From Nitrosococcus halophilus Nc 4 (lineage in GTDB: Bacteria > Pseudomonadota > Gammaproteobacteria > Nitrosococcales > Nitrosococcaceae): a stretch of 64,000 nucleotides of DNA. Numbering within the stretch: position 1 is the stretch's first letter; every line of letters starts with the position of its first letter. A program made the position numbers and the translations under genes. A model generated the notes under the pieces. That model did not search any database, was not told the DNA's origin, and saw only the letters and a program-made list of their open reading frames with translations. The stretch is taken from assembly GCF_000024725.1 (NCBI RefSeq), contig NC_013960.1, forward strand, positions 1,448,261 to 1,512,260, written 5' to 3'. This document shows, piece after piece, positions 34,328 through 53,948 of the stretch.

Positions 34328-35854
34328 TTACTTAAGATTAAGAGGGCTTAGCGTAAAACAAAAGGAAGCACCTTGGCCTTCTTCTCCTTCCGCCCAAATG
34401 GTTCCTCCATGACGGTGTACCACACGTTGTACTGTCGCTAGACCGATGCCTAATCCTTCAAATTCGTGTTCATTATGTAGCCGCTGGAAAACCTGGAACA
34501 GCTTGGACTGGTAGTTCGGGTTGAAACCTACACCATTGTCACTGATGATAAATATTTGCTCCCCTTTTTTTTCCAGACAGGTAAATTTCACTTGGGGGTA
34601 TTTTTGTGCTCGGGTGTATTTCCAAGCGTTCGAAAGCAAGTTTTCAAGGCAGATTCGGAGTAGTTTACTATCAGCCGCTGCGGTTATGTCCGGTTGAATG
34701 TAAATGTCTACCCCCCGTTCGGGTTGTTCCTGGCGGAGCTCGTTGACGATTTCAGCGGCTAAAACTGACAAATTCAGTTTTGAACGGTCGAGTTCGTGGC
34801 GGTTGATGCGCGAGAGTTGGAGCAGGCCATCGAGTAGCAGCCCCGTTCGTTGGCTGGCTCCTTGAATCCGGCTGAGATAGTGCTTGCCATCCTCGTCCAG
34901 AACTTCTCCATAATCCTCCCAAAGGACCTTGCTAAATCCTGTCATGGCTCGGAGGGGAGCGCGCAGATCATGGGAGACCGAGTAACTAAAAGCCTCGAGT
35001 TCTTGGTTTACTCTCGCCAGTTCCTGGAGCTTATGTTGTAAGGAACGGTTCAGCCCTCTAATTTTCTCTTCGGCCTGTTTCCGAACCGTGATGTCGCGAA
35101 TAATGGCAATGGTCTTAGTGCCCCGTTGGGACACGAAAGAACTTAGGGCCACCTCAACAGGGAATTTAGTGCCGTCCGCCCTTAGGCCGTAAAGCTTTCG
35201 ACCGACACCTATTTCCTGGGTCGTCGGCGATTGCTGGTGGGCGGTTCGGTACTGGGCATGTAGTTTACGGTAGAGTTCGGGGATAAGTTTTTCGGGAGGT
35301 TGGCCGAGCAACGCTTCCCGGGGGTAGCCAAAGAGCTGCTCGGTCTGGGTATTGACCAAGGAGATGGCGCCTTCTGGGTTGACTAGCACGATCCCATCAG
35401 GCGCCGCTTCACAGAGGTTACGAAAGCGTTGCTGATTTTCCCGGGCTTGCTTTTCTGCTTCAATCAGTGGGGTAATATCACGCCCGGTAGCGACGACCAT
35501 CTGAACAGTATTGGCGGCGTTATTAACGGGGCTGAGGAGGTATTCATAGTATCGACTACCCCCATCTCGGGAATAAGTAATTGGGCTGATCTGGGGTTTT
35601 CCGGAGGTGATGACGATTTGGAGATCACACTCAAAGCGCTCCATAATGTCGGCGGGCAGCCCAAGTTCTCGCCAAGAGCGCCCAATCACCGCCTCCAATG
35701 GTAAGCCAAGTTCCTCTAGTCCGCTAGGATTGGCGTAGAGGTAACGTCCCTCTCGATCGTAGATGTAAATGTGATCGGCGCAGGCTTCTAATGCCGCTTT
35801 GAACAACCCAGAGAAGGGTATTGAAGATTGCAGGTTTGGATATTTATTTTCCAT
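34328..35854 (-). CDS. Multi-PAS sensor histidine kinase
   Basis: A 508-residue soluble kinase with two PAS domains (about residues 14-130 and 140-265), a coiled-coil linker near 265-285, HisKA 'SYSVSHDLRAPLRAMTGFSKV' and HATPase 'CLENLLSNAWKYTR', 'ISDNGVGF', 'GLGIGLATVQRVVHRHGG'. The linker and kinase core resemble phytochrome-like kinases. No response regulator is adjacent, so the partner is unknown. Confidence 0.88.
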   Translation of the reverse strand: MENKYPNLQSSIPFSGLFKAALEACADHIYIYDREGRYLYANPSGLEELGLPLEAVIGRSWRELGLPADIMERFECDLQIVITSGKPQISPITYSRDGGSRYYEYLLSPVNNAANTVQMVVATGRDITPLIEAEKQARENQQRFRNLCEAAPDGIVLVNPEGAISLVNTQTEQLFGYPREALLGQPPEKLIPELYRKLHAQYRTAHQQSPTTQEIGVGRKLYGLRADGTKFPVEVALSSFVSQRGTKTIAIIRDITVRKQAEEKIRGLNRSLQHKLQELARVNQELEAFSYSVSHDLRAPLRAMTGFSKVLWEDYGEVLDEDGKHYLSRIQGASQRTGLLLDGLLQLSRINRHELDRSKLNLSVLAAEIVNELRQEQPERGVDIYIQPDITAAADSKLLRICLENLLSNAWKYTRAQKYPQVKFTCLEKKGEQIFIISDNGVGFNPNYQSKLFQVFQRLHNEHEFEGLGIGLATVQRVVHRHGGTIWAEGEEGQGASFCFTLSPLNLK

Positions 35855-36000
35855 GATAATCCTCTTCCAAGATGAGCAGACTAAACCGAGAAGCGACAGG
35901 GGACAATACTGCGGCCTAACTTTCTAGGCAGAATGGTAAAGGTTGCCACCGAGCAGGGGGTTGGCTTATATATAGAAGCCTTATCCAGGAGGAATTAACT

Positions 36001-36204
36001 ATGGCGGAAATCAACGCGAAGAAAACCACCGAAGAACAAATTGCCTCGGAGCTTAGCAGCAAAGGGGAATTCGCTGAGTCAGTGCTTGGAGAGCCTGAAC
36101 CTTGGGCGGAATGGGAAACCCGGCTGTGCCTCTGGAGTATAGGCATTGGGACTGTTGCCCTAGTGATACTAGGGTTTTTGATCAATCAATTTTTGCTTTC
36201 CTAA
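36001..36204 (+). CDS. Small single-pass membrane protein
   Basis: A 67-residue protein: acidic, helical N-terminal half and one C-terminal hydrophobic segment (about 45-65). The strong AGGAGG at about 35988-35993 supports its reality. It is followed by two genes on the same strand, a DUF5395-like protein and a YeiH transporter, with which it probably forms an operon. Not recognised as a named family. Confidence 0.65.
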   Translation: MAEINAKKTTEEQIASELSSKGEFAESVLGEPEPWAEWETRLCLWSIGIGTVALVILGFLINQFLLS

Positions 36205-36216
36205 CGTGATACTGTA

Positions 36217-36471
36217 ATGAAAGCGGACTTGGAAGTCAGCCTGATCCATGACGGCACTTACTGGATTGTTCGCCACCCGACCCTGGAAGCTCGTGGTCGG
36301 ACCTTGTCTGAACTGGACCAAGACCTTACCCAGCGCCTGCGGGAAAAGGGGGATTTTCCAGCATCTAGCCAGGTAACGGTGTTCATGGGTTTTGATTACG
36401 ACACCATACCTACTTGGATCCGGCAATATGCCTATCATTATTTCAACCGCTATGTTCTGCTGCGCCTGTAG
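36217..36471 (+). CDS. DUF5395-like small protein
   Basis: An 84-residue soluble protein containing 'VTVFMGFDYDTIPTWIRQYA' then 'HYFNRYV', a stretch I associate with DUF5395 proteins found beside YeiH-type transporters. No catalytic motif is visible. It begins 12 nt after the preceding small gene. Function unknown; an accessory subunit of the transporter is possible by context. Confidence 0.6.
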   Translation: MKADLEVSLIHDGTYWIVRHPTLEARGRTLSELDQDLTQRLREKGDFPASSQVTVFMGFDYDTIPTWIRQYAYHYFNRYVLLRL

Positions 36472-36485
36472 CTTTCATGAAACCT

Positions 36486-36503
36486 CCGCAGGGAAACCTG
36501 CGG
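36486..36503. promoter_or_regulatory. GAAA-loop hairpin before the YeiH gene
   Basis: CCGCAGG-GAAA-CCTGCGG is a perfect 7-bp stem with a GNRA loop between the DUF5395-like gene and the YeiH gene. No T run follows, so it is more likely an mRNA processing or stability element than a terminator. Confidence 0.45.
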
Positions 36504-36563
36504 CTTCAGTCACCGGACTATTGACGGGTGATTGCTGAGTAAGAAAAAAAGGGGGAAGTATCA

Positions 36564-38027
36564 ATGGCTGGAGTGAATCGGAGATGGTACTCCGGTATGG
36601 CCACCACTGAAGATTGGTGGGCGGTCTGGCTAGGTTTGATTATGTTTCTGGCCGGTTTGACCTCTATTTGGGGTTGGGATTTGGTCGGTTGGATGGCAAA
36701 AACCGGAACCTGGGTATGGGGGGATTTTTCCTGGGACAAGGCCTTGAAAGCGACCGGTTACCAAGAGTGGCATCCGCTTCTTTCCTTGCTGGTTACTTAT
36801 CTAGTGTTTACTGCCCTGACCTGCCTCGGGGCAGCCGCCATGAAACTCAACTTGAAACGCTTTTTTGCCGGCTGGACTCTCCTTTTTGTAATGACCTGGG
36901 CGGTGTGGATTATGGGTCACGAAGCCCACTTTAAGGCCTCCGTTAACGAGTTCGATAAGTATGGTTTGTCCTGGGGGCTCTCCCTGGGGGGAGGCTTCTC
37001 TTACATGCTAGCTTTGGTGGTCGGGCTGGTTATCGGGAATTTCTTCAAAGGTTTTGCTGAGTTTTTGAGGGAAGCGGCCAAACCGGAATGGTTCATTAAG
37101 ACCGCGATTGTCTATCTGGGGATCAAGATTGGTCTCATGTCCATCGAAGCGGCGAGCTTTACCTTTGAACTGGCCCTTGCCGGTATTGCCGCCACCTTCG
37201 TGGCCTATTTATTATTTTGGCCTATCGTCTATACCCTCAGCCGGAGAGTGTTTCGCCTCTCCCGTGAAGCTTCGGCGGTCCTTTCCTCGGGCATTTCTAT
37301 TTGCGGGGTCTCGGCCGCCATTGCCACTGCCGGCGCTATCCGGGCCCGTCCCGTGTTGCCGGTCATGGTCTCCATGCTGATCGTCATTTTCGCCATGATT
37401 GAGCTCATTGTATTGCCCGGTTTTTATACCGCGGTGGCGCCCAACCAGCCTATCGTCAACGGCGCGGCCATGGGCATGACCGTCAAGACCGACGGGGCCG
37501 ACGCGGCTGCCGGCGCTATTCTTGATGAACTTATGCGGGCCAACGCTGAAGCTAATTTGGGAGTGGTCTGGCAAGAGGGCTGGATTCTGACATCCTCCAT
37601 TGTGACTAAAATCTGGATTGACATGTTTATCGGCGTTTGGGCTTTTCTCTTGGCTCTGGTTTGGGTTTACAAGGTGGAGCGCCAGCCGGGACAGTCCAAG
37701 GTGGGAGTGATCGAGATTTGGCACCGTTTCCCCAAATTCGTGTTGGGTTATCTTTTGGCCTGGTTTGTCTATATGGCGATTGCCACCTTGGGGCCGGAAT
37801 TGAGCGGGACGGCAACCCAGGGCGCCGAAGTGGTGGAAGGACCCATGCGGAAGATGATGTTCATGCTGACCTTTGTCAGCATCGGTGTGATTACCGACTT
37901 TAGCAAGCTCAAGGGGATGGGCAAACTGGCGCTGCTTTACGCTATTGCTCTGTTTGCGATTATTGCCCCTATTGCCTATGGCGTGGCTTGGATCTTTCAC
38001 CATGGGATGATGCCCCCCACGGCGTAG
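36564..38027 (+). CDS. YeiH-family putative sulfate exporter
   Basis: A 487-residue polytopic membrane protein of the YeiH (UPF0324) family, with an N-terminal extension over the shorter E. coli type. About 11-12 hydrophobic segments are visible. Family stretches are 'FIKTAIVYLGIKIGLMSIEA', 'VLSSGISICGVSAAIATAGA', 'MIELIVLPGF' and 'GPMRKMMFMLTFVSIGVITD'. Sulfate export is the family's putative annotation and is not proven. GGGGGA precedes the start. The two small upstream genes may be partners. Confidence 0.8.
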   Translation: MAGVNRRWYSGMATTEDWWAVWLGLIMFLAGLTSIWGWDLVGWMAKTGTWVWGDFSWDKALKATGYQEWHPLLSLLVTYLVFTALTCLGAAAMKLNLKRFFAGWTLLFVMTWAVWIMGHEAHFKASVNEFDKYGLSWGLSLGGGFSYMLALVVGLVIGNFFKGFAEFLREAAKPEWFIKTAIVYLGIKIGLMSIEAASFTFELALAGIAATFVAYLLFWPIVYTLSRRVFRLSREASAVLSSGISICGVSAAIATAGAIRARPVLPVMVSMLIVIFAMIELIVLPGFYTAVAPNQPIVNGAAMGMTVKTDGADAAAGAILDELMRANAEANLGVVWQEGWILTSSIVTKIWIDMFIGVWAFLLALVWVYKVERQPGQSKVGVIEIWHRFPKFVLGYLLAWFVYMAIATLGPELSGTATQGAEVVEGPMRKMMFMLTFVSIGVITDFSKLKGMGKLALLYAIALFAIIAPIAYGVAWIFHHGMMPPTA

Positions 38028-38035
38028 CTGTTGTT

Positions 38036-38091
38036 GTAGGAGCGTCCTTCAGGACGCGGTTTGATATTCGCGGCTAGAAGGCCGCTCCTAC
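38036..38091. repeat. REP-like structured repeat after the YeiH gene
   Basis: GTAGGAGC...GCTCCTAC closes an element containing two inner hairpins (GCGTCC-TTCA-GGACGC and GCGGC-N6-GCCGC). This 'GTAGGAGCGTCCTTCAGGACGC' type of sequence is a dispersed repeat in many proteobacteria. The region 38092-38383 has no gene but holds two further structured sites. Confidence 0.7.
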
Positions 38092-38238
38092 CCATCATCA
38101 ATTTGGGGCTGTGACTAAAATACCCCTATTTTTCTTGGTTAATTATCTCGGTGAAAATTTTGAGCGGAAGGGGGTGGGTTTCGTGCTGCCTTGCTTGCGC
38201 ACATAGGCAGCACAACCGTCCCTACGAGCCAACAGTAG

Positions 38239-38255
38239 CGTGCGCTGTGCGCACG
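38239..38255 (+). promoter_or_regulatory. CGTGCGC-TGT-GCGCACG palindrome upstream of locus 1
   Basis: Perfect 7-bp arms with a 3-nt centre, 128 bp before the first gene of the three-gene ATPase/nuclease operon. The context GTAGCGTGCGC-N3-GCGCACGAAGAG recurs at 54682-54708 on the other strand, upstream of locus 2 and in the same orientation relative to its genes. It could be an operator or, alternatively, a dispersed repeat of the GTGCGC type. Confidence 0.5.
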
Positions 38256-38291
38256 AAGAGGGGCTAAGTTTATGTTGCTCTATCTTCTGTC

Positions 38292-38347
38292 GATAAGAAG
38301 AGTTTAAAAGTCGATTTATTGCGGTAACCTTCTTATCAAAGGCAAAC
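38292..38347 (+). promoter_or_regulatory. GATAAGAAG/CTTCTTATC inverted repeat before locus 1
   Basis: A perfect 9-bp inverted repeat (arms 38292-38300 and 38339-38347) ending 36 bp upstream of the start codon at 38384. It could be an operator with two half sites or an mRNA leader hairpin for the operon. Confidence 0.4.
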
Positions 38348-38383
38348 ATCGAGTCATTCTAAAAAATATTTTAAGGAACACAT

Positions 38384-39268
38384 ATGACTATGGATGAGGC
38401 GACCTTAGAACTCATTGCTCAGCAGGTAAAAGCACTTCCCAAGCCTACGCCCCTATCCACCCTTGGAACCAAGCTTCGAAAGCTAGACATTAGAATCAAA
38501 AATCCAGAGCTGGAATCCGCTTTGGAGGAGTTGGTTCGTCGTCATCAAATTTTTTGCCATCCGCCTCACCGAGGCGGGCGCAATGCTACTCCCTGTTATT
38601 TTGGTAGCTCTGCGGTCGAGTATCTTAAAGATAAACTACTTCACCAGCAGTTTAACACCAAAACCACCTGGACGGAGGCTTCCCTGCGGGGCAGCGTGCC
38701 TAAAGCTTATGTGAAATTCCTGGATGAGGCTGTTGGAGATTTGCTCCATGCCAAGGATTTATTCCAATGGCGAAAGCGCAATTCCGTTTATCTTTCAATC
38801 CAGCCGCCACAACCTACTGAGTTTATCACCAAGGCCCAAAAAGATTCCCTTCAGAAGCTCCTTGCTCGCATTAACCCATACCGCCAGAAACCGTTGGATT
38901 TGACCACCCTGCTCGAATTTTTAGATGGGAAAGATGAGGTCTCTTCCCATCCTCAAGCAAATTTGCTGGATCAGGATTTAACGGAAGAATTACTCGTCCG
39001 CTGGTATGGACAGGATCTTCCGCAAAGGGAGGGATTGCGGTCAATGCCCATTCCTTGGACCTGGCAACGGTATGGGCAATGGTGCCAAGAGCGCGGCGTT
39101 TTGCCAAATTCTGATCGCTTCCATCAGCTATTGGAGGAGATGGCGGCCCGCAGCCATATTGCCCTGATTCCCCACGACAGCCCCCGGGATCTCTCCGCCG
39201 AAGAGGTCTCTGTTTTGCGCCGGAACTTCGAGGGTCGGATTAATTATTACTGGACCATCCTGTCTTGA
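38384..39268 (+). CDS. Locus 1 gene A: helix-turn-helix-like protein of unknown function
   Basis: A 294-residue soluble protein with no recognised named family. The first ~90 residues ('STLGTKLRKLDIRIKNPELE' then 'ALEELVRRHQIFC') look like a winged-helix fold. The C-terminal end 'LLEEMAARSHIALIPHDSPR' then 'DLSAEEVSVLRR' has the same pattern as the end of the small locus 2 protein ('VLLKLQQEGKLVLSPLDDSR' then 'EISAADQEAA'), again a winged-helix-like wing and recognition region. AAGGA lies 7 nt before the start. Its stop (TGA at 39266-39268) lies 11 nt before the gene B start. A DNA-recognition or adaptor role for the ATPase is inferred from context. Confidence 0.75.
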   Translation: MTMDEATLELIAQQVKALPKPTPLSTLGTKLRKLDIRIKNPELESALEELVRRHQIFCHPPHRGGRNATPCYFGSSAVEYLKDKLLHQQFNTKTTWTEASLRGSVPKAYVKFLDEAVGDLLHAKDLFQWRKRNSVYLSIQPPQPTEFITKAQKDSLQKLLARINPYRQKPLDLTTLLEFLDGKDEVSSHPQANLLDQDLTEELLVRWYGQDLPQREGLRSMPIPWTWQRYGQWCQERGVLPNSDRFHQLLEEMAARSHIALIPHDSPRDLSAEEVSVLRRNFEGRINYYWTILS

Positions 39269-39279
39269 TGGGAGCTGCC

Positions 39280-41346
39280 ATGAATGAGCAATTCCGCTTT
39301 ATTAATCCCTTCTTAAGCATCTCAGTCAATGAAGATGAAATTTGGGCTGAAGAGGAGAACGGTTTTCAAGATATTGAAACCATCAATCAAGGCCCTTTTA
39401 AGGCATTGACCGATGATATCATCCAGGTCAAAAAAGATCCTCGACACAATACCCGGGTTCGTTTTTTGGTCGGCAACGGGGGTTCTGGCAAATCCCATCT
39501 TTTCTCTCGCTTGCGGCGGAGGATGGGGCATGAGGCCATTTTTACATTTGCCTCTAACCCGCCCACCCGTGCCGAGGGGATCTTAAGTTGGGTGCTGAGC
39601 AAGGTTATCGGAGGCTTAAAGCATCCTTGCCTAAATGGCGAAGTCAAACCTTACACCCAGCTCCATGGACTGCTGTATGAACTGCTTAGGGATGGCTTTC
39701 GGTTTAACGGCACCCTGGATGAGTTCCATGAAGCCGCCCAGGCAGACCCGGAAGCTTTTTTCTCTAAAGCGCAACACTATCTGGTGACCCGGCAATTTCC
39801 CCATGAGCCGGATCTGGCCCGTATTCTAGCCCATGTTCTCCATCCCGAAAGAAGTGAATTGGCATTTCGTTGGTTAGCCGGGTCCACGAATCTAATCGAT
39901 CAGGAACTGGTTGCCATTGAGCAAAGGGAACCCCTCCCTGAAGAGATGAAATTGCAAATTCTAAGCCGGGTGGGCCGGGCGACAGTCCCTAAGGGAACCC
40001 CCATCGTGCTGGTTCTCGACCAGCTTGATTTGATGACCCAACCCGCCCTTGTCGATGCCTTTCAACATTTGTTCTTTGCCCTCATTGACGAGAGCAAGCA
40101 CTGGTATCTCGTGGTGAGTTTGATAGATGACAAATTCGATTTTTGGAAAAGCCAATTTAGCACGGCTCTCCGAGACCGACTGGAAGAGCCCCTTCCTGTA
40201 GTGGCCTTACAACCCCTGGGGGATATTAAGGAAAAGGAAGCGCTGATAAAACTCAGGCTGGCGACACCTGAATTGGTGCGGTTGAGAATAGCACAGGGTA
40301 TCAATAATCCCCTTTATCCTTTGGGGGAAGCAGATATTAGGGGACTGGTAGAGGGTGAGCCTCTTTACCCACGCCAACTTTTACGCCAAGCCAAGGCGAG
40401 GTATTCGGCAGTCACCAGTGGCCAAGTGGAAAAGCCCGTTAAGTTGGGAGCGGAAATTGAGACGGCCTTTGATAAGGCCCGGGCAAAGATTAATGAAAAC
40501 GAACTGGAAATCAACAAAGACATCCTGGCCGATAGATTCTGTGAAGTCCTAGAGGTGCTTTGCGCGGCAGAGGGGCGGGCATTTGAGTCCCACCTGGGAC
40601 CCCTGGCCTCTGAAGCAAATTTCCGGGGAACAGATACCCTTTTAAAAATTGATGGCTGTGAAATGCGCCTCCTGGGTCACCATATCCACCAAGGAGCCCA
40701 GTTTCCCAATTTTATGAAAAAGGTAATGCCTCTCCCTCTGGAAAGCGTACTCATTAGAGATGGTAAAGTCCCCATCTCTGGCAAAGTCACGAGCCAGCGG
40801 CTGACTGAATTTCAAAAAGATAAAATCTTTATTCATTTACCACGACCGGAAATCGGTGACGCCTATGCCTTGGGAGAAGTCCTGGCTAGTTTGCGGGAAC
40901 AAGAATTCGCGGGCTTGAATACCGATCCGCCTCCAACTCCTGAAAATATCAAACAATGTCTGGGGGAAATCCCAAAGCTTGCTCACGGCCAAGTGGCTAA
41001 AAAAGTCTTGGCATTGGTTAATCCCCATTCTGCTTCTGTTTCCGCTTCAACTCCGCCCCTCCCTCCAATGGCAATCCCTACTCAGGTTCAGGCCCAAATT
41101 CAAATGCCGCCCCAGGACTTAGTGAAAGCGATAAGAGCCCTCATGGAATCGGACCGCTGGTTGATTTTTGAGCGCCTCCGCCGCCGGTTAAAAACTATCC
41201 ATCACCTGGAGGTGACGCCCGAAGAATTAAGGGCGGCCATTGCCTCGGAGCCTCTCTGCCACGATTTATTGCGTTATCCGGAAGACACTCACACCGTGGA
41301 AGAGACTCAGATCCTGATCTGGTCCGTGGAGGAGGCCTATGCTTAA
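39280..41346 (+). CDS. Locus 1 gene B: large P-loop ATPase
   Basis: A 688-residue ATPase. Walker A 'VGNGGSGKSHLFSRL' is at about residues 64-78; Walker B has the unusual form 'IVLVLDQLDLM' near 242-252; an 'LYPRQLLRQAKARY' helix follows near 362-375; a second conserved block 'SVLIRDGKVPISGKVTSQRL' lies near 488-508. The Ala/Pro-rich stretch near 590-620 is a linker to a C-terminal helical domain. These landmarks recur in the same order in the first ~640 residues of the locus 2 protein. GGGAG six nt upstream decides ATG 39280 over 39268. The fold looks like Orc1/STAND or BREX-type ATPases; the exact family was not recognised. It overlaps gene C by 8 nt. Confidence 0.82.
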   Translation: MNEQFRFINPFLSISVNEDEIWAEEENGFQDIETINQGPFKALTDDIIQVKKDPRHNTRVRFLVGNGGSGKSHLFSRLRRRMGHEAIFTFASNPPTRAEGILSWVLSKVIGGLKHPCLNGEVKPYTQLHGLLYELLRDGFRFNGTLDEFHEAAQADPEAFFSKAQHYLVTRQFPHEPDLARILAHVLHPERSELAFRWLAGSTNLIDQELVAIEQREPLPEEMKLQILSRVGRATVPKGTPIVLVLDQLDLMTQPALVDAFQHLFFALIDESKHWYLVVSLIDDKFDFWKSQFSTALRDRLEEPLPVVALQPLGDIKEKEALIKLRLATPELVRLRIAQGINNPLYPLGEADIRGLVEGEPLYPRQLLRQAKARYSAVTSGQVEKPVKLGAEIETAFDKARAKINENELEINKDILADRFCEVLEVLCAAEGRAFESHLGPLASEANFRGTDTLLKIDGCEMRLLGHHIHQGAQFPNFMKKVMPLPLESVLIRDGKVPISGKVTSQRLTEFQKDKIFIHLPRPEIGDAYALGEVLASLREQEFAGLNTDPPPTPENIKQCLGEIPKLAHGQVAKKVLALVNPHSASVSASTPPLPPMAIPTQVQAQIQMPPQDLVKAIRALMESDRWLIFERLRRRLKTIHHLEVTPEELRAAIASEPLCHDLLRYPEDTHTVEETQILIWSVEEAYA

Positions 41347-43150
41347 ATCCCAGCTTTTATCCCTGGAACTGGATCCGGAGATTCGGGCTCACATTGAACC
41401 GCCCATTTTCGATGCGCTCTTTTCCCATGTGGCCAAACATCCCCCCGCCAAGCATAAACGGGGAGTTCCTTCCCTTACGGTTAGCCGTGCCAAGCAAATT
41501 CTGGAAATTGTGCTGCCTCACTATCGAGAGCGAGTTGCCGCTTCCCTTGATGGGATAAATCGAAACAATTTCGTCTCCTTTAAAGAAGTGGGCCTTCTCA
41601 CTCACCAGTGGATTCACGAATCGGTTAAATTTTTCCGTCGTGAGGGCGCCCCGATTTTACGGGAAGCCTTGGTCAAGGATAACGAAGAACAGCGAGTAGA
41701 TTATCTTTGGAGCATTCTCTTCTCAAGGCGATTGCTTCCCCTTATTCAAGGATCGGGGTTGTTGAGAGATCCCCAGAAATTTGAATGTTGCGATTTGGCC
41801 GTGGAGTGCATCAAGCTCTGGTTGGGGGATATTGCCAAGAAACTTGGGAGTGTGGATGCGGATCGTTTCTCCCCCAGCGCGTTTTTTCTAGACACGGAAA
41901 GTTATATGGAAGGGGAGATCGAATGGAAAGGCCGGCGATTACATCTTCGAGGCAAGCCGGATGCGGTCATGTTGAATGGGGAGACGGGGCGCCCGGAGGT
42001 ATGGGAATACAAGTTTGGCTTGCAAGGGCAGATTGAACTGCAAATTGCCCAGGTGTTGTTTTATTTGCACTTGCTCAATGCCGTAAAAGGGCAAGCTTTC
42101 GAGACGGGAAGGCTGGAGATTTTTCGCGTTACCCCTGATCTAGAAAAGGAAAGTTCCGGGACGCAATCGGAGTTCGCCGAGAAAATCGAGGCGGCGTTTG
42201 CCGGGTATGTGGGTAATTACGCTGCGGTGCGGCGGTTAAAAATCGAGTGCACCTTGGCATTGAAGCAAAGCAATCCTCCAACAATGCCGATCAACTTGAT
42301 GTTTTCTGGACCGGGCGGTTTGGGTAAAACCGAACTGGCTCGGCGGGTGGCAAAAGCCTTGGGGTTACCTCTAGTGGATGTTCCTGCAACGACAGTGCGG
42401 GATGTGGACAGTCTTCTGGAGAGAATTAATCAAACCCTGCAAAAAAATGGGCAAGAGCCTATTGAAGTGGGTACTGATTCCGGGCTTAAAAAGATGGAAT
42501 ATCCTCCCCTGGTGATCTTTCTCGATGAGGTGCATGAATTGCGCCGCAATGCGGATACCTTCTTGAATATGTTTGAGCCCAAGGAGAAGCGGGCGGTTGG
42601 CAAAAAAGTAGTGGGCGATTTTAAAAATGCCACTTTGCTGGCGGCAACGACCACTCCTGGACTGCTTCCTAGCCCCTTTCTTAGCCGATTTCGAATCATC
42701 GACCTCGTGCCCTATACGGCGGAGGAAGTGGCCGCCATCATTAAGCCAGTTTTTCAAAAATCAGGTAAAGCCGTGGAAGAATCCTTTTTGGTAGGGCTGG
42801 CTAAACGGGGTCGATTAAATCCTCGGGTGGCCATTCAACGGGCCGAGGAAATGCTAAGCCACCATCTGTTTGATGAAAAGCAATACCCCCTCAATGAAAT
42901 AGGATTGGAACGGATATCCACGGAGAGTTGGCGGGTGGATACCCATGGACTACGGCAACTTGACCATACTTATCTAAAAGCTCTACAAAGCGGGCCTAGG
43001 GGATTAAGCGCACTGGTCTCGCTCCTTCCGGTAGAGCGGGAAGAAATCACCCAGATGGTTGAGCCCTACCTACTCCAATTGGAAGCGATTTCCCTCACAA
43101 CAAAAGGGCGGGAGCTCACCGAACGGGGCCGTTTGATTTTGGAGGGGTGA
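41339..43150 (+). CDS. Locus 1 gene C: PD-(D/E)XK nuclease-like domain fused to a RuvB-like AAA+ ATPase
   Basis: A 603-residue fusion. Residues ~190-260 carry a RecB/Cas4-like nuclease pattern: Asp in 'RGKPDAVML' (208), E-x-K in 'VWEYKFG' (223, 225) and 'QIELQIAQVLFYLHLL' matching the QxxxY helix. Residues ~315-520 are RuvB-like: Walker A 'GPGGLGKTELARRVAKAL', Walker B 'LVIFLDEVHEL', sensor/arginine-finger 'LLAATTTPGLLPSPFLSRFR', 'NPRVAIQRAEEML'. The C terminus ('GLSALVSLLPVEREEITQMV' then 'EPYLLQLEAI' and 'KGRELTERGR') matches the RuvB winged helix. Genuine RuvB is ~340 residues with no nuclease domain. GGAGG precedes the start, which overlaps gene B. A motor that moves DNA junctions and cuts is inferred. 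Confidence 0.85.
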   Translation: MLKSQLLSLELDPEIRAHIEPPIFDALFSHVAKHPPAKHKRGVPSLTVSRAKQILEIVLPHYRERVAASLDGINRNNFVSFKEVGLLTHQWIHESVKFFRREGAPILREALVKDNEEQRVDYLWSILFSRRLLPLIQGSGLLRDPQKFECCDLAVECIKLWLGDIAKKLGSVDADRFSPSAFFLDTESYMEGEIEWKGRRLHLRGKPDAVMLNGETGRPEVWEYKFGLQGQIELQIAQVLFYLHLLNAVKGQAFETGRLEIFRVTPDLEKESSGTQSEFAEKIEAAFAGYVGNYAAVRRLKIECTLALKQSNPPTMPINLMFSGPGGLGKTELARRVAKALGLPLVDVPATTVRDVDSLLERINQTLQKNGQEPIEVGTDSGLKKMEYPPLVIFLDEVHELRRNADTFLNMFEPKEKRAVGKKVVGDFKNATLLAATTTPGLLPSPFLSRFRIIDLVPYTAEEVAAIIKPVFQKSGKAVEESFLVGLAKRGRLNPRVAIQRAEEMLSHHLFDEKQYPLNEIGLERISTESWRVDTHGLRQLDHTYLKALQSGPRGLSALVSLLPVEREEITQMVEPYLLQLEAISLTTKGRELTERGRLILEG

Positions 43151-43358
43151 GGGTGGGGTTATGGTTGCCGGGAGTAGCAAGACCTTCCCGATCGTTATGT
43201 TCGTTACAAATCAAATATGCAGGCAAATTTGTCCGGTTTATACATCAAGATTAAGTTATCAGGGCAAGATTACTTGAATGGGTTATTGTCATGTCAAAAG
43301 CACCTAAATTATCAGGTAATATCAACTTATCAGAGTGTATTTACTTGAGAATAAATTG

Positions 43359-43518
43359 TTCGCGCCGCTACGCGGCGCGAATCGGGGAGTTGACTACGTC
43401 AAACGGTTGCCTGCGCCGCTTCGCGTCGCGAACAACCGTTCGACTGGCAGAACCTCCCGCATAATCAGACGCTGTGCGTCTATGTATGCAGGAGAACCCG
43501 CCAGTCAACTCCCCGATT
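43359..43518 (+). ncRNA. Cloverleaf-like structured element upstream of the GHKL ATPase gene
   Basis: Five nested palindromic units in 160 bp: TTCGCGCCGC-TAC-GCGGCGCGAA (43359-43381); outer arms AATCGGGGAGTTGACT (43380-43395) and its perfect complement (43503-43518); inside, GTCAAACGGTTG/CAACCGTTCGAC (43398-43409/43433-43444, one mismatch) and a long arm CTCC-GCATA-AGACGC-TGT-GCGTCT-TATGC-GGAG (43454-43494). The result is a 16-bp closing stem with two arms. It ends 32 bp before the ATG of the next gene. It could be an ncRNA, a recombination site or a paired-REP element; no partner integrase or reverse transcriptase is near. 'ncRNA' is only one reading. Confidence 0.45.
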
Positions 43519-43550
43519 AGCGCATCGACAAGACACAATCAGGAGAAGAT

Positions 43551-45188
43551 ATGGAAACTACAACTTCCACCAAGATAAAACCACAAGTACATGACTTAAG
43601 CACCTTTAAACAGATTATGGAGAGTCGATCCCATCCTTTGGATATGTTGAGGGAGGGCATCAGCAATATGATGGCTCCAGAAATTGGCGCATCCGAATTG
43701 CGAATCCAGCATTATAGCCATCCTGAATACAATGCTTCATTTATTCTGAAAGATAACGGAATTGGGATGTCCTATACAGGAAATGCTGAAAATCCTGGCA
43801 GACTGGATAGGTTTATAGGCCTTGCTTTTTCACGTGCTGCTGGATTGTCTGCAGACTATTGGGGATGGAAGGGTCTTGGGTCAAAACTTATGCTTAATTG
43901 TAATAAATTGGTGGTCGAAACCTGGACAGGTAACCCAGATGAAAAATTTATTATTTTAAACATCATTAACCCAAGGAGTTCTTTGTTATCAGAACCCCCT
44001 ATAGCTCCGGATTATTACCTTACACAAAGAGATTCTTTGCCATCTGATCATAAAGGGACAAAAATTGAAGTGCTTGGCTACGATGGCGGGAAAAAAATGT
44101 ATTCTATGGAGGAAATAGAAAGATATCTGTATTGGAATACCGCTTTGGGCATAACAAAGGATATTAGCCATAAGCCTCAGATTTTTTTAAAAGTAAACTC
44201 TGAAGAGAAGAATTTAGATATTGGTTTTAAATACATCACAACACAACTCTTGGACGATGGGTCAAGAGACTGGAGAACAGTGGTAATAGAAAATCCAATA
44301 TCGAAGTCGGAGAAAGTAATCATAGATGGGAAAGAAAGGGAAATAAAAGTAACATTAAAAGGCGGTTTCACTCTTGACACTGGTAAATTTGGCTTGTCGC
44401 CTTATCGTTACAACACTGGATTACGATTATCAGTAAAGGGCATTCCCTATTTTCAGTTTCCTTTTTATGAATATAAGGGTAAAAAATTTCAGCAATATAA
44501 AGATTTATGTAGCTTTGTTGTTGAGTGCGACGAAATAGAGCCGAAATTAAATTTAGATAGAAGTAATATTAGCAATCAAATGGGGGATGACCCCATTGTA
44601 AAAACGTTTAAAAAATTAACATCCAAATGTTTTGATGAATTTACAGAGGTTGACCAATATAAAGAATTCGAAAAGAACAAAAGAAAAGAGGATGAACGTA
44701 ATAAAGCATCAGCAGTTAGAAAGAGGCAAGCTGCATTAAGCAAAGCAAACCAAGAATATGCTTGTGTTGAGACTGATGAAGGAACAAAAGTCATACATAG
44801 AGTTCCTGATAATTCTGAAATGCACACATTGTGTATTTTCTGGAAACTAGAGGCGTTGGGGAGATTGCCATTTGAGAATTTCATCACTTGGGAACACACA
44901 AAAAAAGATGGAATAGATGTTATTGCATCCTTTCAAATTGACGATGAATCATCTCTGGAAAATTTCGTACCTGTTGAATTCGAGGCAACTTTTGAAAATT
45001 TTATCAATCACGGCCATAATCCTAAGCAAACAAAATGTATAATTTGTTGGGAAATTGGCAATAAATCGGCACTTAGAAAAATTAGTGATTTTTTGTACTA
45101 CTATGATATTGATGGGACATCTATTCCTGTTTATGAAATCAAGTCCTTTCCTGATGTAAAAATACATAATTATTCTGAGATAAGTTGA
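43551..45188 (+). CDS. GHKL (MORC/MutL-like) ATPase with predicted C-terminal nuclease-like domain
   Basis: A 545-residue protein. The GHKL ATPase core has N-box 'MLREGISNMM' (Glu 35, Asn 39), 'LKDNGIGMSY' (68-75) and 'GWKGLGSKLML' (105-115). After a coiled-coil stretch near 370-400 ('EKNKRKEDERNKASAVRKRQ') comes a C-terminal domain with 'KDGIDVIASFQ', 'PVEFEATFENFINHGHNP' and 'KCIICWEI', a pattern like restriction-endonuclease-fold domains (Asp 456, Glu 476/478). GHKL ATPases of this kind are known from prokaryotic restriction-modification contexts. The gene is clearly more AT-rich than its neighbours, which suggests recent transfer. AGGAGA lies before the start. A defence role is inferred. 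Confidence 0.78.
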   Translation: METTTSTKIKPQVHDLSTFKQIMESRSHPLDMLREGISNMMAPEIGASELRIQHYSHPEYNASFILKDNGIGMSYTGNAENPGRLDRFIGLAFSRAAGLSADYWGWKGLGSKLMLNCNKLVVETWTGNPDEKFIILNIINPRSSLLSEPPIAPDYYLTQRDSLPSDHKGTKIEVLGYDGGKKMYSMEEIERYLYWNTALGITKDISHKPQIFLKVNSEEKNLDIGFKYITTQLLDDGSRDWRTVVIENPISKSEKVIIDGKEREIKVTLKGGFTLDTGKFGLSPYRYNTGLRLSVKGIPYFQFPFYEYKGKKFQQYKDLCSFVVECDEIEPKLNLDRSNISNQMGDDPIVKTFKKLTSKCFDEFTEVDQYKEFEKNKRKEDERNKASAVRKRQAALSKANQEYACVETDEGTKVIHRVPDNSEMHTLCIFWKLEALGRLPFENFITWEHTKKDGIDVIASFQIDDESSLENFVPVEFEATFENFINHGHNPKQTKCIICWEIGNKSALRKISDFLYYYDIDGTSIPVYEIKSFPDVKIHNYSEIS

Positions 45189-45239
45189 GCGCTAACAATG
45201 GCATCCACCAGATTGCCATTCCGCTGCCGCTTCAAACAT

Positions 45240-45252
45240 AAGGGGTCAGATA
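45240..45252. repeat. GGGGTCAG short repeat, copy 1
   Basis: AAGGGGTCAGATA. The same core recurs at 45551-45564, 45569-45588, 45591-45610 (ATGGGTCAGATCTTTGC), 47141-47160 and 48363-48382. Several copies continue GGGGTCAGRTCTTG. They lie only between gene remnants of this accessory island. Confidence 0.6.
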
Positions 45253-45273
45253 CCGTCTTTTGAGTCAAGGGAT

Positions 45274-45564
45274 TTAAACAGCGAAGTGGGGTTCAAATGG
45301 GGTTTTATTTTTTAGAACGCCATAGATGAGATGAACGAGTTTTCGCATGGCGGCACCGACGATAGTCATTTTGGGTTTTCCAGCGGCGAGCAAGCGTTTT
45401 TTCATCTCGATTAAAACGGGATTGAATCGGAGGGCCACCAGAGCGGGCATGAAAAACGCTTTACGCAGTGCCCGTCTGCCCATTTTTGACATCAATCCTC
45501 GCTGAGCCAGTGAGGTGCCAGATTGTCTTATTCTCGGCGAGACCCCAATTACATTAGGGGTCAT
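45274..45564 (-). pseudogene. IS110-family transposase C-terminal remnant
   Basis: About 95 residues matching the end of an IS110/IS1111 (transposase_20) protein: 'GVSPRIRQSGTSLAQRGLMS', 'KMGRRALRKAFFMPALVALR', 'LLAAGKPKMTIVGAAMRKLV', 'LIYGVL'. The N-terminal DEDD catalytic part and the rest of the element are missing. The apparent start Met comes from a GGGGTCAT repeat joined to its 5' end. Confidence 0.85.
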
Positions 45565-45610
45565 TTACATTAGGGGTCAGATCTTGCACTGTAATGGGTC
45601 AGATCTTTGC
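45551..45610. repeat. GGGGTCAG short repeats, three tandem copies
   Basis: ACATTAGGGGTCAT (45551-45564), then ATTAGGGGTCAGATCTTGCA (45569-45588) and GTAATGGGTCAGATCTTTGC (45591-45610) in tandem, at the broken end of the IS110 remnant. The region 45611-45788 after it shows no gene. Confidence 0.6.
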
Positions 45611-45788
45611 TTAGTGCTAATAAAAGGTGCCTGTCTGCCTAACGCACTATGCAAGACTAATCCCTGTTTGGATGCTATTTCGTGATCCTGTGGTACGTGA
45701 TCCGTATATCCGGAGGTGTAGAAATAAGGATACTGGGAGACCTCCCTTTATCCTGGTTGGGCCTACCTAAAAGTCTTAGCAGGACATA

Positions 45789-45817
45789 TTGACAGAGTGT
45801 AGCCATTAGGCTACATT
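45789..45817 (+). promoter_or_regulatory. Promoter with embedded operator of a HigBA-type module
   Basis: TTGACA (45789-45794), a 17-nt spacer, then TACATT (45812-45817). The palindrome TGTAGCC-ATTA-GGCTACA (45798-45815) fills the space between and into the -10, as in autorepressed toxin-antitoxin promoters. The toxin ATG at 45823 would fall close to the transcription start, so a leaderless message is possible. Confidence 0.65.
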
Positions 45818-45822
45818 TATCC

Positions 45823-46097
45823 ATGACTGAAATCCGCAAAACGGAGACCTACACTAAGTGGCTGGATAGTTTGCGCGATATCCATGGGTGAGCCCGCATT
45901 TTTGTGAGAGTTGAGCGCTTGGTAGCTGAAAATCCAAGTGACGTCGGACCAGTAGGGGAGGGCGTTTCTGAGTTGAATATCGATAATAGTTTCGGTTATC
46001 GGGTGTATTTTATAAAGCGCGGTCAGTGGCCGGTGGGGACAAGCGCGCTCAAGCCAAGGATATCAAGACCGCATTACGTCTCGTGCAAAATCTGTAG
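45823..46097 (+). pseudogene. HigB/RelE-like toxin, inactivated
   Basis: The frame starts 'MTEIRKTETYTKWLDSLRDIHG' in two parts typical of the phage-derived Gp49/HigB-like killer family, is cut by a TGA at about 45889, resumes with 'ERLVAENPSDVGPVGEGVSEL' and 'YRVYFIKRG', and then shifts frame near 46030 to end 'GGDKRAQAKDIKTALRLVQ' in another frame. So there is one in-frame stop and one frameshift. The intact promoter region is retained. Antitoxin reading frame follows after 9 nt. Confidence 0.78.
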
Positions 46098-46106
46098 GAA
46101 TTTATC

Positions 46107-46451
46107 ATAGCTAAGACCACTACAACTCGTTACGATATTGCCGAGCACCTCCGTACACCAGAGGAAATGGCGGCTTATCTGGAAGTTTGCCTTGAGGAAG
46201 CAAATGGCGACGCCGCATTTATCGCCAAAGCGTTGGGTGATATTGCTCGCGCTAAAGGGATGTCGCAAGTTGCACGTGATGCCGGCGTATCACGGGAAAG
46301 CCTTTATAAGGCGCTTTCAGGAGAAAGAACTCCTGGCTTCGATACAATTCTCAAGGTAATAAAAGCACTAGGTTTGGAACTGCACGCTGAAGCAGCTACT
46401 TTAAAAGGGAAACAGCCTTTATTGGCTACGCTCAAAAAACAAGATGCTTAA
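46107..46451 (+). CDS. HigA-type antitoxin reading frame with ATA in place of the start codon
   Basis: About 114 codons encoding the usual partner of the killer protein: 'AKTTTTRYDIAEHLRTPEEM', 'ALGDIARAKGMSQVARDAGV' (helix-turn-helix), 'SRESLYKALSGERTP', 'VIKALGLELHAEA'. Homology begins at the codon where ATG is expected, but the codon is ATA (46107). The first usable in-frame ATG is at 46167, which would drop about 20 residues. It may therefore be weakly expressed or dead; the helix-turn-helix part is intact. Confidence 0.7.
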   Translation: MAKTTTTRYDIAEHLRTPEEMAAYLEVCLEEANGDAAFIAKALGDIARAKGMSQVARDAGVSRESLYKALSGERTPGFDTILKVIKALGLELHAEAATLKGKQPLLATLKKQDA

Positions 46452-46658
46452 CGGGCTGCTTAAGTAGGACTACTTTTTGGTCTGCGGCCATTTACTGGCA
46501 GTCGTTGCTCAGGTACTTGGTTCTTGGCGCAGAGCGTCCCGGCAATCGAATGCTCAAACGGGTCAGTTTGCCCGGCTAACCTCATTCTCCGGTACCTGAA
46601 GAAACTCGCTGCTCAGCCCCGCCATTAGGAAAAATAATAACGTGAATAGAGACACAAA

Positions 46659-46883
46659 GTGACAATAAAGTTCTCACGACATGCAAAAAGAAGAGCGAAG
46701 CTCTACAAGATATCGGAGTCTACTATTAAGCAAATACTAGAAGATTCGGATTTAGTTGATGGCGAGCATGAGATAATCAGAGATATGGTCGGGTTTAGAT
46801 ATCCAATAAAGATTATTGTCTCTGTTGAAAACGATACGACGACTGTAATCACAAATTATCCGCTGAAAAGAGGAAAGAAATAA
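46659..46883 (+). CDS. DUF4258-domain protein (toxin-like)
   Basis: A 74-residue protein, GTG start, with 'FSRHAKRRAKLYKISESTIK' and 'VVITNYPLKRGKK'-like end typical of DUF4258 proteins, which are related to RelE/BrnT-type toxins. The stop and the start of the next gene overlap (TAATG). Paired with the DUF2283 gene, this is the only pair in the island that looks intact. AT-rich, unlike the flanking housekeeping genes. Confidence 0.72.
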   Translation: MTIKFSRHAKRRAKLYKISESTIKQILEDSDLVDGEHEIIRDMVGFRYPIKIIVSVENDTTTVITNYPLKRGKK

Positions 46884-47110
46884 TGAAAGTACATTATGAT
46901 GAAGAAATAGATGCATTGTATTTGAAGCTTGGTGATTTAGAACCAGATGGGGTCATTGAGATCGAGGAAGGCGTCAATATCGATACTACCAATGATGGAA
47001 AACTTACCGGGATAGAAATACTTAATGCCTCAAAAAAGATTGATATTAACACAATTTTGTCTTATACGATTGAGTTAGATCAAGGCATATTGAAGAATAA
47101 AATCGCTTAA
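46883..47110 (+). CDS. DUF2283-domain protein (partner of DUF4258 gene)
   Basis: A 75-residue protein of the DUF2283 family: 'VHYDEEIDALYLKLGD', 'GVIEIEEGVNIDTTNDGKLT', 'GIEILNASKKI'. DUF2283 genes are frequent partners of DUF4258 genes in toxin-antitoxin-like pairs, and probably the antitoxin side. Overlaps the upstream stop by one base, so translation is coupled. Confidence 0.78.
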   Translation: MKVHYDEEIDALYLKLGDLEPDGVIEIEEGVNIDTTNDGKLTGIEILNASKKIDINTILSYTIELDQGILKNKIA

Positions 47111-47140
47111 GGAGAAAAACTCATCTGACTCTCTTCGACA

Positions 47141-47160
47141 TAAGGGGTCAGGTCTTGTTA
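47141..47160. repeat. GGGGTCAGGTCTTG short repeat
   Basis: TAAGGGGTCAGGTCTTGTTA, just downstream of the DUF2283 gene. A near-identical copy is at 48363-48382 (TTAAGGGGTCAGGTCTTGTT). Both are followed by AT-rich sequence without a gene. Confidence 0.6.
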
Positions 47161-47264
47161 AGTGATTATACATAAGAGTTAATATTTTTAATTATCCAAG
47201 CCAATCCATTGAAAAATAGGAGTGTTTAGGTGTCTTGTGGTTTGTTATTTTTGGATCTACGGTA

Positions 47265-47467
47265 AGAAGCTGTTGGAAAACTTTGAGGACAGCGTAGGGT
47301 GTGCAGAGCGCAGCGATGCACACCATGGAAAAGGGGACCCACGAACAGCGGTGATGCACCCCTTCCCTATGGGCATCCTTCGGAGGTCCCCATGTGCTCC
47401 CGGCGAATCGGTGGGTTTCGCTACGCTCAACCCACCCTACCCATAAAGGTATTTTCCAACAGCTTCT
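47265..47467. mobile_element. MITE-like element with 16-bp perfect terminal inverted repeats
   Basis: AGAAGCTGTTGGAAAA (47265-47280) and its exact complement (47452-47467) enclose 171 bp without a credible gene. The interior carries GGGTGTGCAGAGCGCAGCGATG and a GGGCATCCTTCGG...CTCCCGGCGAATCGGT block that recurs inverted at 60479-60520. Solo ends resembling the terminal repeat are at ~10250 and ~48233. Confidence 0.7.
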
Positions 47468-47479
47468 AAGATTTAGTTT

Positions 47480-47784
47480 ATGGTCTATAAAGATTTTAAT
47501 AAAAGAAGCATTCGATTAACTGACGAAAGGCGGCAGCATCTACTCATCCGGAGATGAAAGGGCAGGTTGAACGTATAGGGCAAACGCTAGTTGGTCCCGA
47601 TAAAGTTGTGCGCTCTAGGACAGACCCTTTAGTTGAACTCTTTTATAAATTTTACCAGTCCACACCGGTGACAGAGAAATATCTATATATCGTGGTGAAG
47701 AACTTAGAAAGCGATCATTTCATTATCACAGCTTACTTCACTGACAGTTTAAAACAAGGCGAGGTTCTATGGGAAAGGATGTAA
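47480..47784 (+). pseudogene. PBECR-like nuclease/toxin gene with frameshift
   Basis: ATG 47480 opens 'MVYKDFNKRSIRLTDERRQH' and reaches a stop at about 47557. The second part continues in another frame from 'HPEMKGQVERIGQTLVGPDK' through 'VVRSRTDPLVELFYKFYQST' to 'ITAYFTDSLKQGEVLWERM'. One missing base near 47542-47548 explains the shift. The protein type resembles PBECR-type (phage barnase-EndoU-RelE-like) nucleases usually paired with DUF2283 proteins; the family name is tentative. Confidence 0.6.
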
Positions 47785-47831
47785 CTATTTGGTTTGATGA
47801 AGAGGGAGATTATCTCGAATTCGGTTTATAG
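47769..47831 (+). pseudogene. Truncated DUF2283 partner
   Basis: 'MGKDVTIWFDEEGDYLEFGL' then a stop. The start is the normal DUF2283 start overlapping the nuclease-like gene, but only 20 residues remain before the sequence passes abruptly into an unrelated PIN-domain remnant. Confidence 0.65.
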
Positions 47832-47998
47832 ACGTTCCGTTAGAGCAATCAATAGAATTATCTCATCGTCTAAATATTTATGTGTATGATGCATACCTTA
47901 TTCAGTGTGCGTTACAAACGAATACATCACTTTTAACGCTTGATAATAGTTTGATCTTCTCAGCGAGACAATCGGGTGTGAATTGCTTGGAGGTATAA
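47828..47998 (+). pseudogene. PIN-domain (VapC-like) C-terminal remnant
   Basis: A frame with no start codon reads 'DVPLEQSIELSHRLNIYVYD', 'AYLIQCALQTNTSLLTLDNS', 'ARQSGVNCLEV', the last third of a PIN ribonuclease including the 'YDAY' and 'LLTLDNSL' acidic motifs. It is fused directly to the truncated DUF2283 frame, a recombination scar between two toxin-antitoxin modules. Confidence 0.7.
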
Positions 47999-48000
47999 AA

Positions 48001-53944: not shown

Positions 53945-53948
53945 TAGT

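What the first reader, a model, noticed from the sequence alone, without database searches (positions are those of the whole stretch)
41339..43150. PD-(D/E)XK nuclease-like domain fused to a RuvB-like branch-migration motor
Gene C has a RecB/Cas4-like pattern (Asp 208, E223-x-K225, Q-rich helix) directly before a complete RuvB-like AAA+ domain and RuvB-type C-terminal winged helix. RuvB normally works with RuvA and the separate resolvase RuvC. Joining a nuclease to the motor in one chain suggests a machine that translocates on branched DNA and cleaves it.
Basis: partly seen in the sequence, partly recalled or inferred. Interest (0 to 1): 0.85.

Follow-up and report, generated by a model that had tools for sequence, protein, structure and literature searches.

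The report
Nuclease fused to RuvB-like motor
In two closely related bacteria one gene joins a RecB/Cas4-type DNA-cutting domain to a RuvB-like DNA motor, beside two partner genes in a spot that also collects virus-defence genes; the arrangement looks new but its job is untested.

Summary
Window 41339-43150 encodes one 603-residue protein (gene C). Its N-terminal half matches PD-(D/E)XK nucleases of the RecB/Cas4 kind (Pfam PF12705, 24-25 bits, just above the cut-off of 22) with G85xxxH89, D208, E223xK225 and Q238xxxY242 in order. Its C-terminal half is a RuvB-type AAA+ motor plus winged helix (well modelled; the first 19 solved matches are all RuvB, Z 20-26). Gene C is under strong purifying selection and ends a tight, predicted three-gene operon with A (unknown) and B (AAA ATPase). 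It is not RuvB itself: it scores 107 bits against RuvB's cut-off of 282, has ~20 extra residues between the Walker motifs, lacks the RuvA-binding hairpin motif, and groups with stand-alone RuvB-like proteins of large phages; ordinary RuvB and RuvC are elsewhere in the genome. The full fusion was found only here and in one sister species, at the same site, where further genes differ and in the sister match defence models. I read it as a motor-nuclease of a rare defence or repair operon. Cleavage, translocation, junction specificity and defence are untested. A possible RuvB/TnsA-like fusion in a Clostridia bin hints that nucleases joined this motor more than once.

The parts
38384..39268 (+). 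gene A, 294 aa, no family match above chance; winged-helix-like by eye only
   Evidence: intact and 91.8% identical in the sister species
39280..41346 (+). gene B, 688 aa AAA ATPase (AAA_16-like, below cut-off), Walker A GNGGSGKS; start 11 nt after A's stop (TTG at 39265 is an alternative)
   Evidence: distant relatives in 13 other genomes of 398
41339..43150 (+). gene C, 603 aa nuclease-RuvB-like fusion; overlaps the end of B by 8 bp
41339..41878 (+). gene C residues 1-180, helical part with motif-I-like G85xxxH89
   Evidence: PF12705 aligns from residue 83; model helices, low confidence
41879..42190 (+). gene C residues 181-284, PD-(D/E)XK core: D208 (41960-41962), E223 (42005-42007), K225 (42011-42013), Q238/Y242
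   Evidence: dN/dS 0.041 for residues 181-280
42191..42928 (+). gene C AAA+ motor: Walker A K330, Walker B D396/E397, arginine-finger position R450, sensor-2 position R496
42944..43141 (+). gene C RuvB_C winged helix, residues 536-601
   Evidence: PF05491 E 2.9e-14

Best explanation
Gene C is a single-chain motor-nuclease: a RuvB-clade AAA+ ring motor that grips duplex DNA through its C-terminal winged helix and pumps it with ATP, carrying a RecB/Cas4-type PD-(D/E)XK nuclease at each subunit's N-terminus that cuts the DNA being handled. It works without RuvA and RuvC; operon partners A and B (an AAA ATPase) probably recognise the target or the trigger and load it. Most likely role: a rare, narrowly spread system that degrades invading or damaged DNA, at a chromosomal site that accumulates defence genes. 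Shown: the fusion, motor and nuclease motifs, the gene packing, purifying selection, the site. Inferred: a common transcript, ring assembly, DNA pumping, cutting, A/B as loader, defence.
For: Both domains supported by curated profiles. The modelled motor matches solved RuvB with Z 26.5, rmsd 2.9, 281 residues, against 17.4 for the next family listed, Lon. K330, T331, D396, E397, R450 and R496 are invariant in the 19 rows of A2. dN/dS 0.074 for C, 0.041 for the nuclease core, 0.058 for the motor, 0.15 for B, 0.27 for A. A-B-C tightly packed. Same site in the sister species, with differing downstream genes that match Old and RT-Protease_XI defence models there. The genome has its own RuvB (272 bits) and RuvC (187 bits), 0.7 kb apart. 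Parallel: Cas4-like pfam12705 nucleases fused to UvrD helicases are predicted defence components (PMC5704561, section 8 read).
Against: No biochemical data. The nuclease match is marginal and was missed on the full-length proteins. Confidence of the nuclease part of both models is low. Profile-profile comparison with RecB/Cas4/AddB-like sets was no better than shuffles, though that test also failed to join most of those sets to each other. Only two sequences, 97% identical, carry the fusion, so conservation of the catalytic residues is barely tested. Relatives of gene B elsewhere occur without C and, by eye, not in evident defence surroundings. A-C have the window's overall GC (0.506 against 0.518), not that of an obvious recent arrival.
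Confidence: 0.5

Rival explanations
1. Same motor-nuclease, but a housekeeping DNA-repair enzyme (stalled forks, broken ends, junctions) rather than defence.
For: RuvB and RecB are repair proteins (recalled); flanks and operon alike at about 93% DNA identity in two species, as in vertical descent; GC like the window's.
Against: Not in the two other genomes of the genus nor in the other genomes sampled; RuvB, RuvC and other PF12705 proteins are already present; neighbours at the site match defence models in the sister.
Confidence: 0.3
2. The nuclease-like domain is an inactive, DNA-binding or regulatory relic and C is only a motor or switch.
For: Weak profile scores; no Fe-S cysteines of Cas4 type.
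Against: D, ExK, QxxxY and a motif-I-like histidine are all present, and the core's dN/dS is 0.041, the lowest stretch measured in the operon.
Confidence: 0.12
3. C is a RuvA-guided Holliday-junction branch-migration resolvase.
For: RuvB-type motor and wHTH.
Against: RuvA-contact hairpin motif missing and segment shortened; RecB/Cas4-type nucleases are not known as junction resolvases (recalled); RuvC is present elsewhere.
Confidence: 0.07
4. The nuclease assignment is a false positive.
For: Scores near the cut-off, missed on full length; low-confidence models; hhalign no better than shuffles (a weak test).
Against: Models from three libraries (PF12705; PADLOC Cas4; TIGR00372, which may be the same model as one of PADLOC's) align to the same stretch with the motifs in order; ordered signature in 11 of 20,000 shuffles; strand order in the model.
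Confidence: 0.07

Closest known systems
RuvB (TIGR00635 / NF000868, PF05496+PF05491)
   Same: AAA+ core, RuvB_C winged helix, Walker, arginine-finger and sensor-2 positions; fold match Z up to 26.5
   Different: N-terminal nuclease; ~20 extra residues between Walker A and B; no RuvA-binding motif; 107 bits against a cut-off of 282
Stand-alone RuvB-like proteins on phage contigs (L024, L077-L081, L083-L085; 4 of the 9 from contigs over 200 kb)
   Same: same side of the tree (98/95), similar insert (8 of 9) and shortened hairpin segment
   Different: single motor proteins, frames of about 360-380 residues, no nuclease attached
Cas4-like pfam12705 nuclease fused to UvrD helicase
   Same: same nuclease superfamily joined to a DNA motor; predicted defence (PMC5704561)
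   Different: motor there is an SF1 helicase, here a RuvB-type AAA+ motor
McrBC (recalled)
   Same: AAA+ motor paired with a PD-(D/E)XK nuclease
   Different: two chains; McrB is a different, GTP-using AAA+ clade
L107 protein, Clostridia bin
   Same: RuvB motor plus a PD-(D/E)XK-like stretch in one chain
   Different: nuclease-like part is C-terminal and TnsA-like (23.4 bits on the piece, below the cut-off of 26.5); the motor is a closer RuvB (RuvB_N 130 bits)

Membership tests
RuvB | NCBIfam RuvB equivalog cut-offs (282 / 299 bits) | tested here: not met
   107.5 and 101 bits
RuvB | RuvB_C winged-helix domain | tested here: met
   53.2 bits, cut-off 24.7
RuvB | RuvA-binding presensor-1 hairpin (PMC9477746, passages read) | tested here: not met
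   G-x-G-P-x-A-R absent, and Walker B to ATT 36 residues against 43 in 8 of 8 RuvB rows
RuvB | Walker A/B, arginine-finger and sensor-2 positions | tested here: met
   invariant in 19 of 19 rows of A2
RuvB | encoded with ruvA/ruvC | tested here: not met
   the genome's RuvB and RuvC lie about 1.3 Mb from gene C; neighbours A, B and D match neither family; RuvA itself was not sought in the genome
RecB/Cas4-like PD-(D/E)XK nuclease (PF12705) | Pfam gathering score | tested here: met
   met on 5 of 5 fragments of gene C and 2 of 4 of the sister's; not listed for either full-length protein
RecB/Cas4-like PD-(D/E)XK nuclease (PF12705) | catalytic D...[DE]xK with QxxxY | tested here: met
   D208, E223xK225, Q238xxxY242
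RecB/Cas4-like PD-(D/E)XK nuclease (PF12705) | fold | tested here: inconclusive
   low-confidence models
RecB/Cas4-like PD-(D/E)XK nuclease (PF12705) | nuclease activity | not testable with these tools
   needs an assay
Cas4 | four-cysteine Fe-S module (PMC5704561, passage) | tested here: not met
   no Cys between 158 and 303; only C150, C157 and C304 shared with the sister
Cas4 | TIGR00372 cut-off 65 | tested here: not met
   24.1 bits at best
Known defence systems (PADLOC-DB 2.0.0) | model matches of A, B, C, D as a system | tested here: not met
   C: two Cas4 models and four IetA/DolB hits confined to the Walker A stretch; A, B and D none at E up to 1

The most novel reading that the evidence does not exclude
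A previously undescribed class of ring-motor nuclease: a RuvB-clade AAA+ translocase that has lost its RuvA interface and carries its own RecB/Cas4-type nuclease, acting with a small partner protein and a second AAA ATPase as a three-gene anti-invader system, with the motor shared with large phages and a second, independent nuclease fusion in Clostridia.
Probability: 0.35. Interest if true: 0.8.

Novelty: new variant of a known kind. Interest (0 to 1): 0.62.

Why it matters
Nucleases joined to SF1 helicases are well known (PMC5704561); joined to a RuvB-type motor I saw none described in the papers searched (open-licence PubMed Central only, mostly listings). It would show that the best-studied branch-migration motor has been recruited as a stand-alone DNA pump for a nuclease, and it gives a small operon that can be tested directly for phage defence or repair.

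Tried and rejected
Isolated structure prediction of residues 1-300: pLDDT 38.7, no use. Profile-profile comparison of gene C's N-terminus with RecB, Cas4-like and AddB-like sets taken from relatives: against the pooled set probability 2.5% and score 23.2, while 100 shuffles reached 4.0% and 24.8. A control afterwards compared those PF12705 sets with each other: 12 of 13 pairs stayed at 10.3% or less and one reached 46.6%, so the negative says little. PDB sequence search with residues 1-300: one hit at E 0.35, taken as chance. Fold searches: the second look covered residues 277-603 only; no PD-(D/E)XK row was seen among the rows shown, which shows nothing about the N-terminus.

Wider relatives of the fusion: genome contigs and viral contigs with gene C alone, none; plasmids 8 records and phages 13 records, none covering 80% of the query and all matching from residue 286 or later; residues 1-300 in plasmids, none; a nuclease-to-Walker-A DNA pattern in viral contigs, 0; Walker A-B patterns in viral contigs gave 2 and 39 loci, whose frames matched gene C weakly (best E 1.5e-4 apart from L024, which was added for comparison) and mostly have the size of ClpA (ClpA recalled). 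Gene A in plasmids and gene B in plasmids, phages and viral contigs: none; gene B in the class sample: weak matches in 3 other genomes of 369, neighbourhoods not looked at. The 25 and 20 loci, with L024, had no tblastn match of A, B, D or C residues 1-290 at E 0.05; repeated with the sister locus added as a positive control, which rang for A, B and C 1-290. Gene A against the partner genes of gene B relatives: not shown homologous (hhalign probability 1.9%). Holliday-junction resolvase as the function: not favoured, see rivals. Rfam on 38000-49000: nothing at gathering scores.

Rows dropped: for the tree, rows with an aligned query span under 230 residues (L016, L018, L090, L107, L094-L096, L098-L101) were left out by rule, L093 by hand, and L082 and L088 as near-duplicates. 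The spacing counts use the remaining 35 rows. The tree program warned of long branches (L102, L085, L092 and others).
Full report
What is there. Window 41339-43150 (+) is one open frame of 603 codons, gene C. It follows gene A (38384-39268, 294 aa) and gene B (39280-41346, 688 aa from the ATG at 39280, which lies 11 nt behind A's stop with GGGAG in front; a TTG at 39265 is the alternative). C starts 8 bp before B ends. The window lies in a 4,145,260-base, two-contig genome; size, contig number and gene content suggest Nitrosococcus halophilus, but that name is from recall and no call gave it.

The motor half. Pfam gives AAA (320-458, 54.6 bits), RuvB_C (536-601, 53.2 bits) and RuvB_N (34.7 bits), all over cut-off. 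RuvB crystal structures are the best PDB sequence matches (T. maritima RuvB, E 3.1e-23). An AlphaFold model of full-length C with 18 RuvB-like relatives has block pLDDT of 84-97 over most of residues 281-603, with dips to 65-79, and the first 19 rows by structure are all RuvB, Z 20.4-26.5, ahead of Lon at 17.4. K330, T331, D396, E397, R450 and R496 are invariant in the 19-row alignment. NCBIfam's RuvB equivalog models are far from met: 107.5 against 282 and 101 against 299 bits.

Not RuvB proper. In a 35-row tree, gene C (two species), nine phage-collection proteins and one Thermoplasmata protein are split from 23 others, including all eight RuvB rows of relatives, with support 98/95 and with long-branch warnings. 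In that group of 12 the Walker A to Walker B spacing is 59-65 residues in 11 (L085: 49) against 43 in 8 of 8 RuvB rows; Walker B to the ATT motif is 36-38 in 12 of 12 against 43 in 8 of 8; the G-x-G-P-x-A-R motif is absent in 12 of 12 and present in 8 of 8. That motif is also absent in 9 of the 15 remaining rows, so its loss alone does not define the group. RuvA domain III binds RuvB's presensor-1 hairpin (PMC9477746, passages read), which by position in the alignment is the segment altered here. The genome's RuvB and RuvC genes lie together, 0.7 kb apart, about 1.3 Mb away; RuvA was not sought.

The nuclease half. On residues 1-300 Pfam reports only PF12705 PDDEXK_1, 25.0 bits, E 2.2e-5, residues 83-284 (E up to 0.1). 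Pieces 1-290, 61-300, 141-290 and 181-290 give 24.7, 25.2, 24.2 and 24.2 bits. For the sister protein the 150- and 110-residue pieces give 23.9 bits, but the 300- and 240-residue pieces and the full length do not list it, and full-length C does not either; genome-wide PF12705 searches did not list gene C in either genome. As a yardstick, PF12705 scores of frames of RecB size in relatives run from 24.6 to 47.1 bits, with one at 20.2, under the cut-off. Two PADLOC Cas4 models match full-length C (E 9.7e-6, residues 185-259, and 7.7e-5, residues 187-259); TIGR00372, which looks like the second of these, reaches 24.1 bits on a piece, far under its cut-off of 65. The ordered signature G85xxxH89, G205..D208, E223xK225, Q238xxxY242 was seen in 11 of 20,000 shuffles. 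In the full-length model, strands 190-196, 199-205, 208-212 (starting at D208) and 219-227 (with E223 and K225), then helix 231-251 and strand 257-262, follow the order that I recall for this fold, but confidence there is mostly below 50. Isolated folding failed (pLDDT 38.7). Local profile-profile comparison did not beat shuffles, and it also failed to join 12 of 13 pairs of known PF12705 sets. The Fe-S cysteines that Cas4 proteins carry (PMC5704561, passage) are lacking: there is no cysteine between 158 and 303. I conclude: a RecB-like nuclease domain, likely real and likely active, not a Cas4.

Selection and distribution. Between the two species dN/dS (NG86) is 0.27 for A, 0.15 for B, 0.074 for C (0.14 for residues 1-180, 0.041 for 181-280, 0.058 for 281-603) and 0.034 for the flanking YeiH-like gene. 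The full-length fusion was found in 2 of 39 genomes of relatives, own included (G000 and G003); own only of 398 sampled from the phylum with residues 1-300; own only of 369 of the class at E 1e-19; 0 of 48 of the class holding most gene B relatives at E 1e-17. These are samples, and no other phylum was searched by this route.

The site. In G003 the operon stands at the same place: window 34323-43144 aligns at 92.9% to L025, between the YeiH-like gene and ArfB. Past gene C the two genomes part. G000 has a GHKL-type gene (43551-45188; GC 0.358 against 0.506 for A-C and 0.518 for the window) and antitoxin genes; G003 has an IS, an RT-Protease_XI gene (596 bits) and an Old-family gene (185 bits). 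In the two other genomes of the genus the flanking genes are not joined by this operon: G001 has both genes but far apart, G002 has no YeiH-like match. So A-B-C is the steady part of a variable spot that has taken up defence-type genes. This is association in two genomes, not proof.

Partners. Gene B is a weak AAA_16-type ATPase (29.5 bits, cut-off 32.6, on its first 330 residues). Distant relatives occur in 13 other genomes of 398, nine of them in one genus-level group. In 7 of 11 fetched regions a gene of 235-267 aa (one cut by a contig end) ends at or near the start of B's relative, as A does here, and among the frames kept in that script (100 aa or more, overlapping frames removed) none matched gene C. 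Homology of A to those partners is not shown. So an A-B-like pair may be the older unit, with C an addition.

A second fusion. L107 (Clostridia bin) encodes an 848-residue protein with RuvB_N (130 bits) and RuvB_C (61.5 bits) followed by a C-terminal PDF...ELK stretch that matches TnsA-like nucleases at 23.4 bits on its own, below the cut-off of 26.5. If real, nucleases of different kinds have joined RuvB-type motors at least twice.

How it probably works. By analogy with RuvB the C-terminal winged helix would engage duplex DNA and a ring of subunits would pump it; the N-terminal nuclease, one per subunit, would cut DNA held nearby. A and B would choose when and where. Only the anatomy is shown. 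Literature: the 2017 Cas4-family study (section 8 read, other passages seen) describes fusions to UvrD and links to YprA-like helicases; 'AAA' has 0 occurrences in its main text and 'RuvB' 0. The jumbo-phage survey (passages read) says phage RuvC is not coupled to a RuvB-like ATPase, whereas searches found stand-alone RuvB-like proteins on large phage contigs. No described nuclease-RuvB fusion showed in the titles and abstract starts listed, nor in the passages of PMC12839542 that I saw.

Verdict. Observation confirmed; fusion real and, as far as these searches show, undescribed; function inferred. New variant of a known kind (motor-linked RecB/Cas4-like nuclease), interest 0.62.

Noticed in passing
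43371-43545; L025 3513-3684: A 175-bp, strongly hairpin-forming non-coding element (DNA fold z -7.1, 0 of 200 shuffles as stable) stands just before two unrelated genes at the same site: the GHKL-type gene here and the Old-family gene in the sister species (93% identical). No Rfam match.
   Followed up: partly
43551-45188: AT-rich gene for a GHKL/HATPase-like protein of 545 aa (PF13589 E 0.047, below cut-off); one 25%-identical relative over 92% of the length on a Caballeronia plasmid near ParB, RelE/antidote and antirestriction genes.
   Followed up: partly
50621-54037 (-): 1138-aa protein with an N-terminal AAA and a HerA-type domain; matches PADLOC mad8 at 60.9 bits.
   Followed up: no
46167-46451 and 47983-48249: Addiction-module antidote (dnstrm_HI1420) and Phd/YefM antitoxin genes; no partner toxin gene was looked for.
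   Followed up: no
L077-L081, L083-L085, L024: Stand-alone RuvB-like proteins on phage contigs of 48-595 kb, with an insert between the Walker motifs in 8 of the 9; a 2021 jumbo-phage survey reports no RuvB-like partner for phage RuvC.
   Followed up: partly
L102 2304-4433: Thermoplasmata protein, 33% identical to gene C's motor, with an unidentified N-terminal region and a DO-GTPase2-like neighbour below cut-off.
   Followed up: partly
L107 7657-10203: Clostridia RuvB protein with a C-terminal TnsA-like region, near a gene (5158-6936) that looks by eye like a VirD4-type coupling protein.
   Followed up: partly
L025 1777-5418: Sister species: Old-family gene and RT-Protease_XI defence gene near A-B-C; a short AAA-like frame (7110-7517, by eye) lies between gene C and a transposase-like gene.
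   Followed up: partly
L033 2197-6144: In G001 the YeiH-like gene is part of a 1315-codon frame instead of 487.
   Followed up: no
L137-L140, L142, L144, L145: Pairs of a small protein and an AAA ATPase related to gene B recur in the phylum, mostly in one genus-level group, without a detected gene C.
   Followed up: partly
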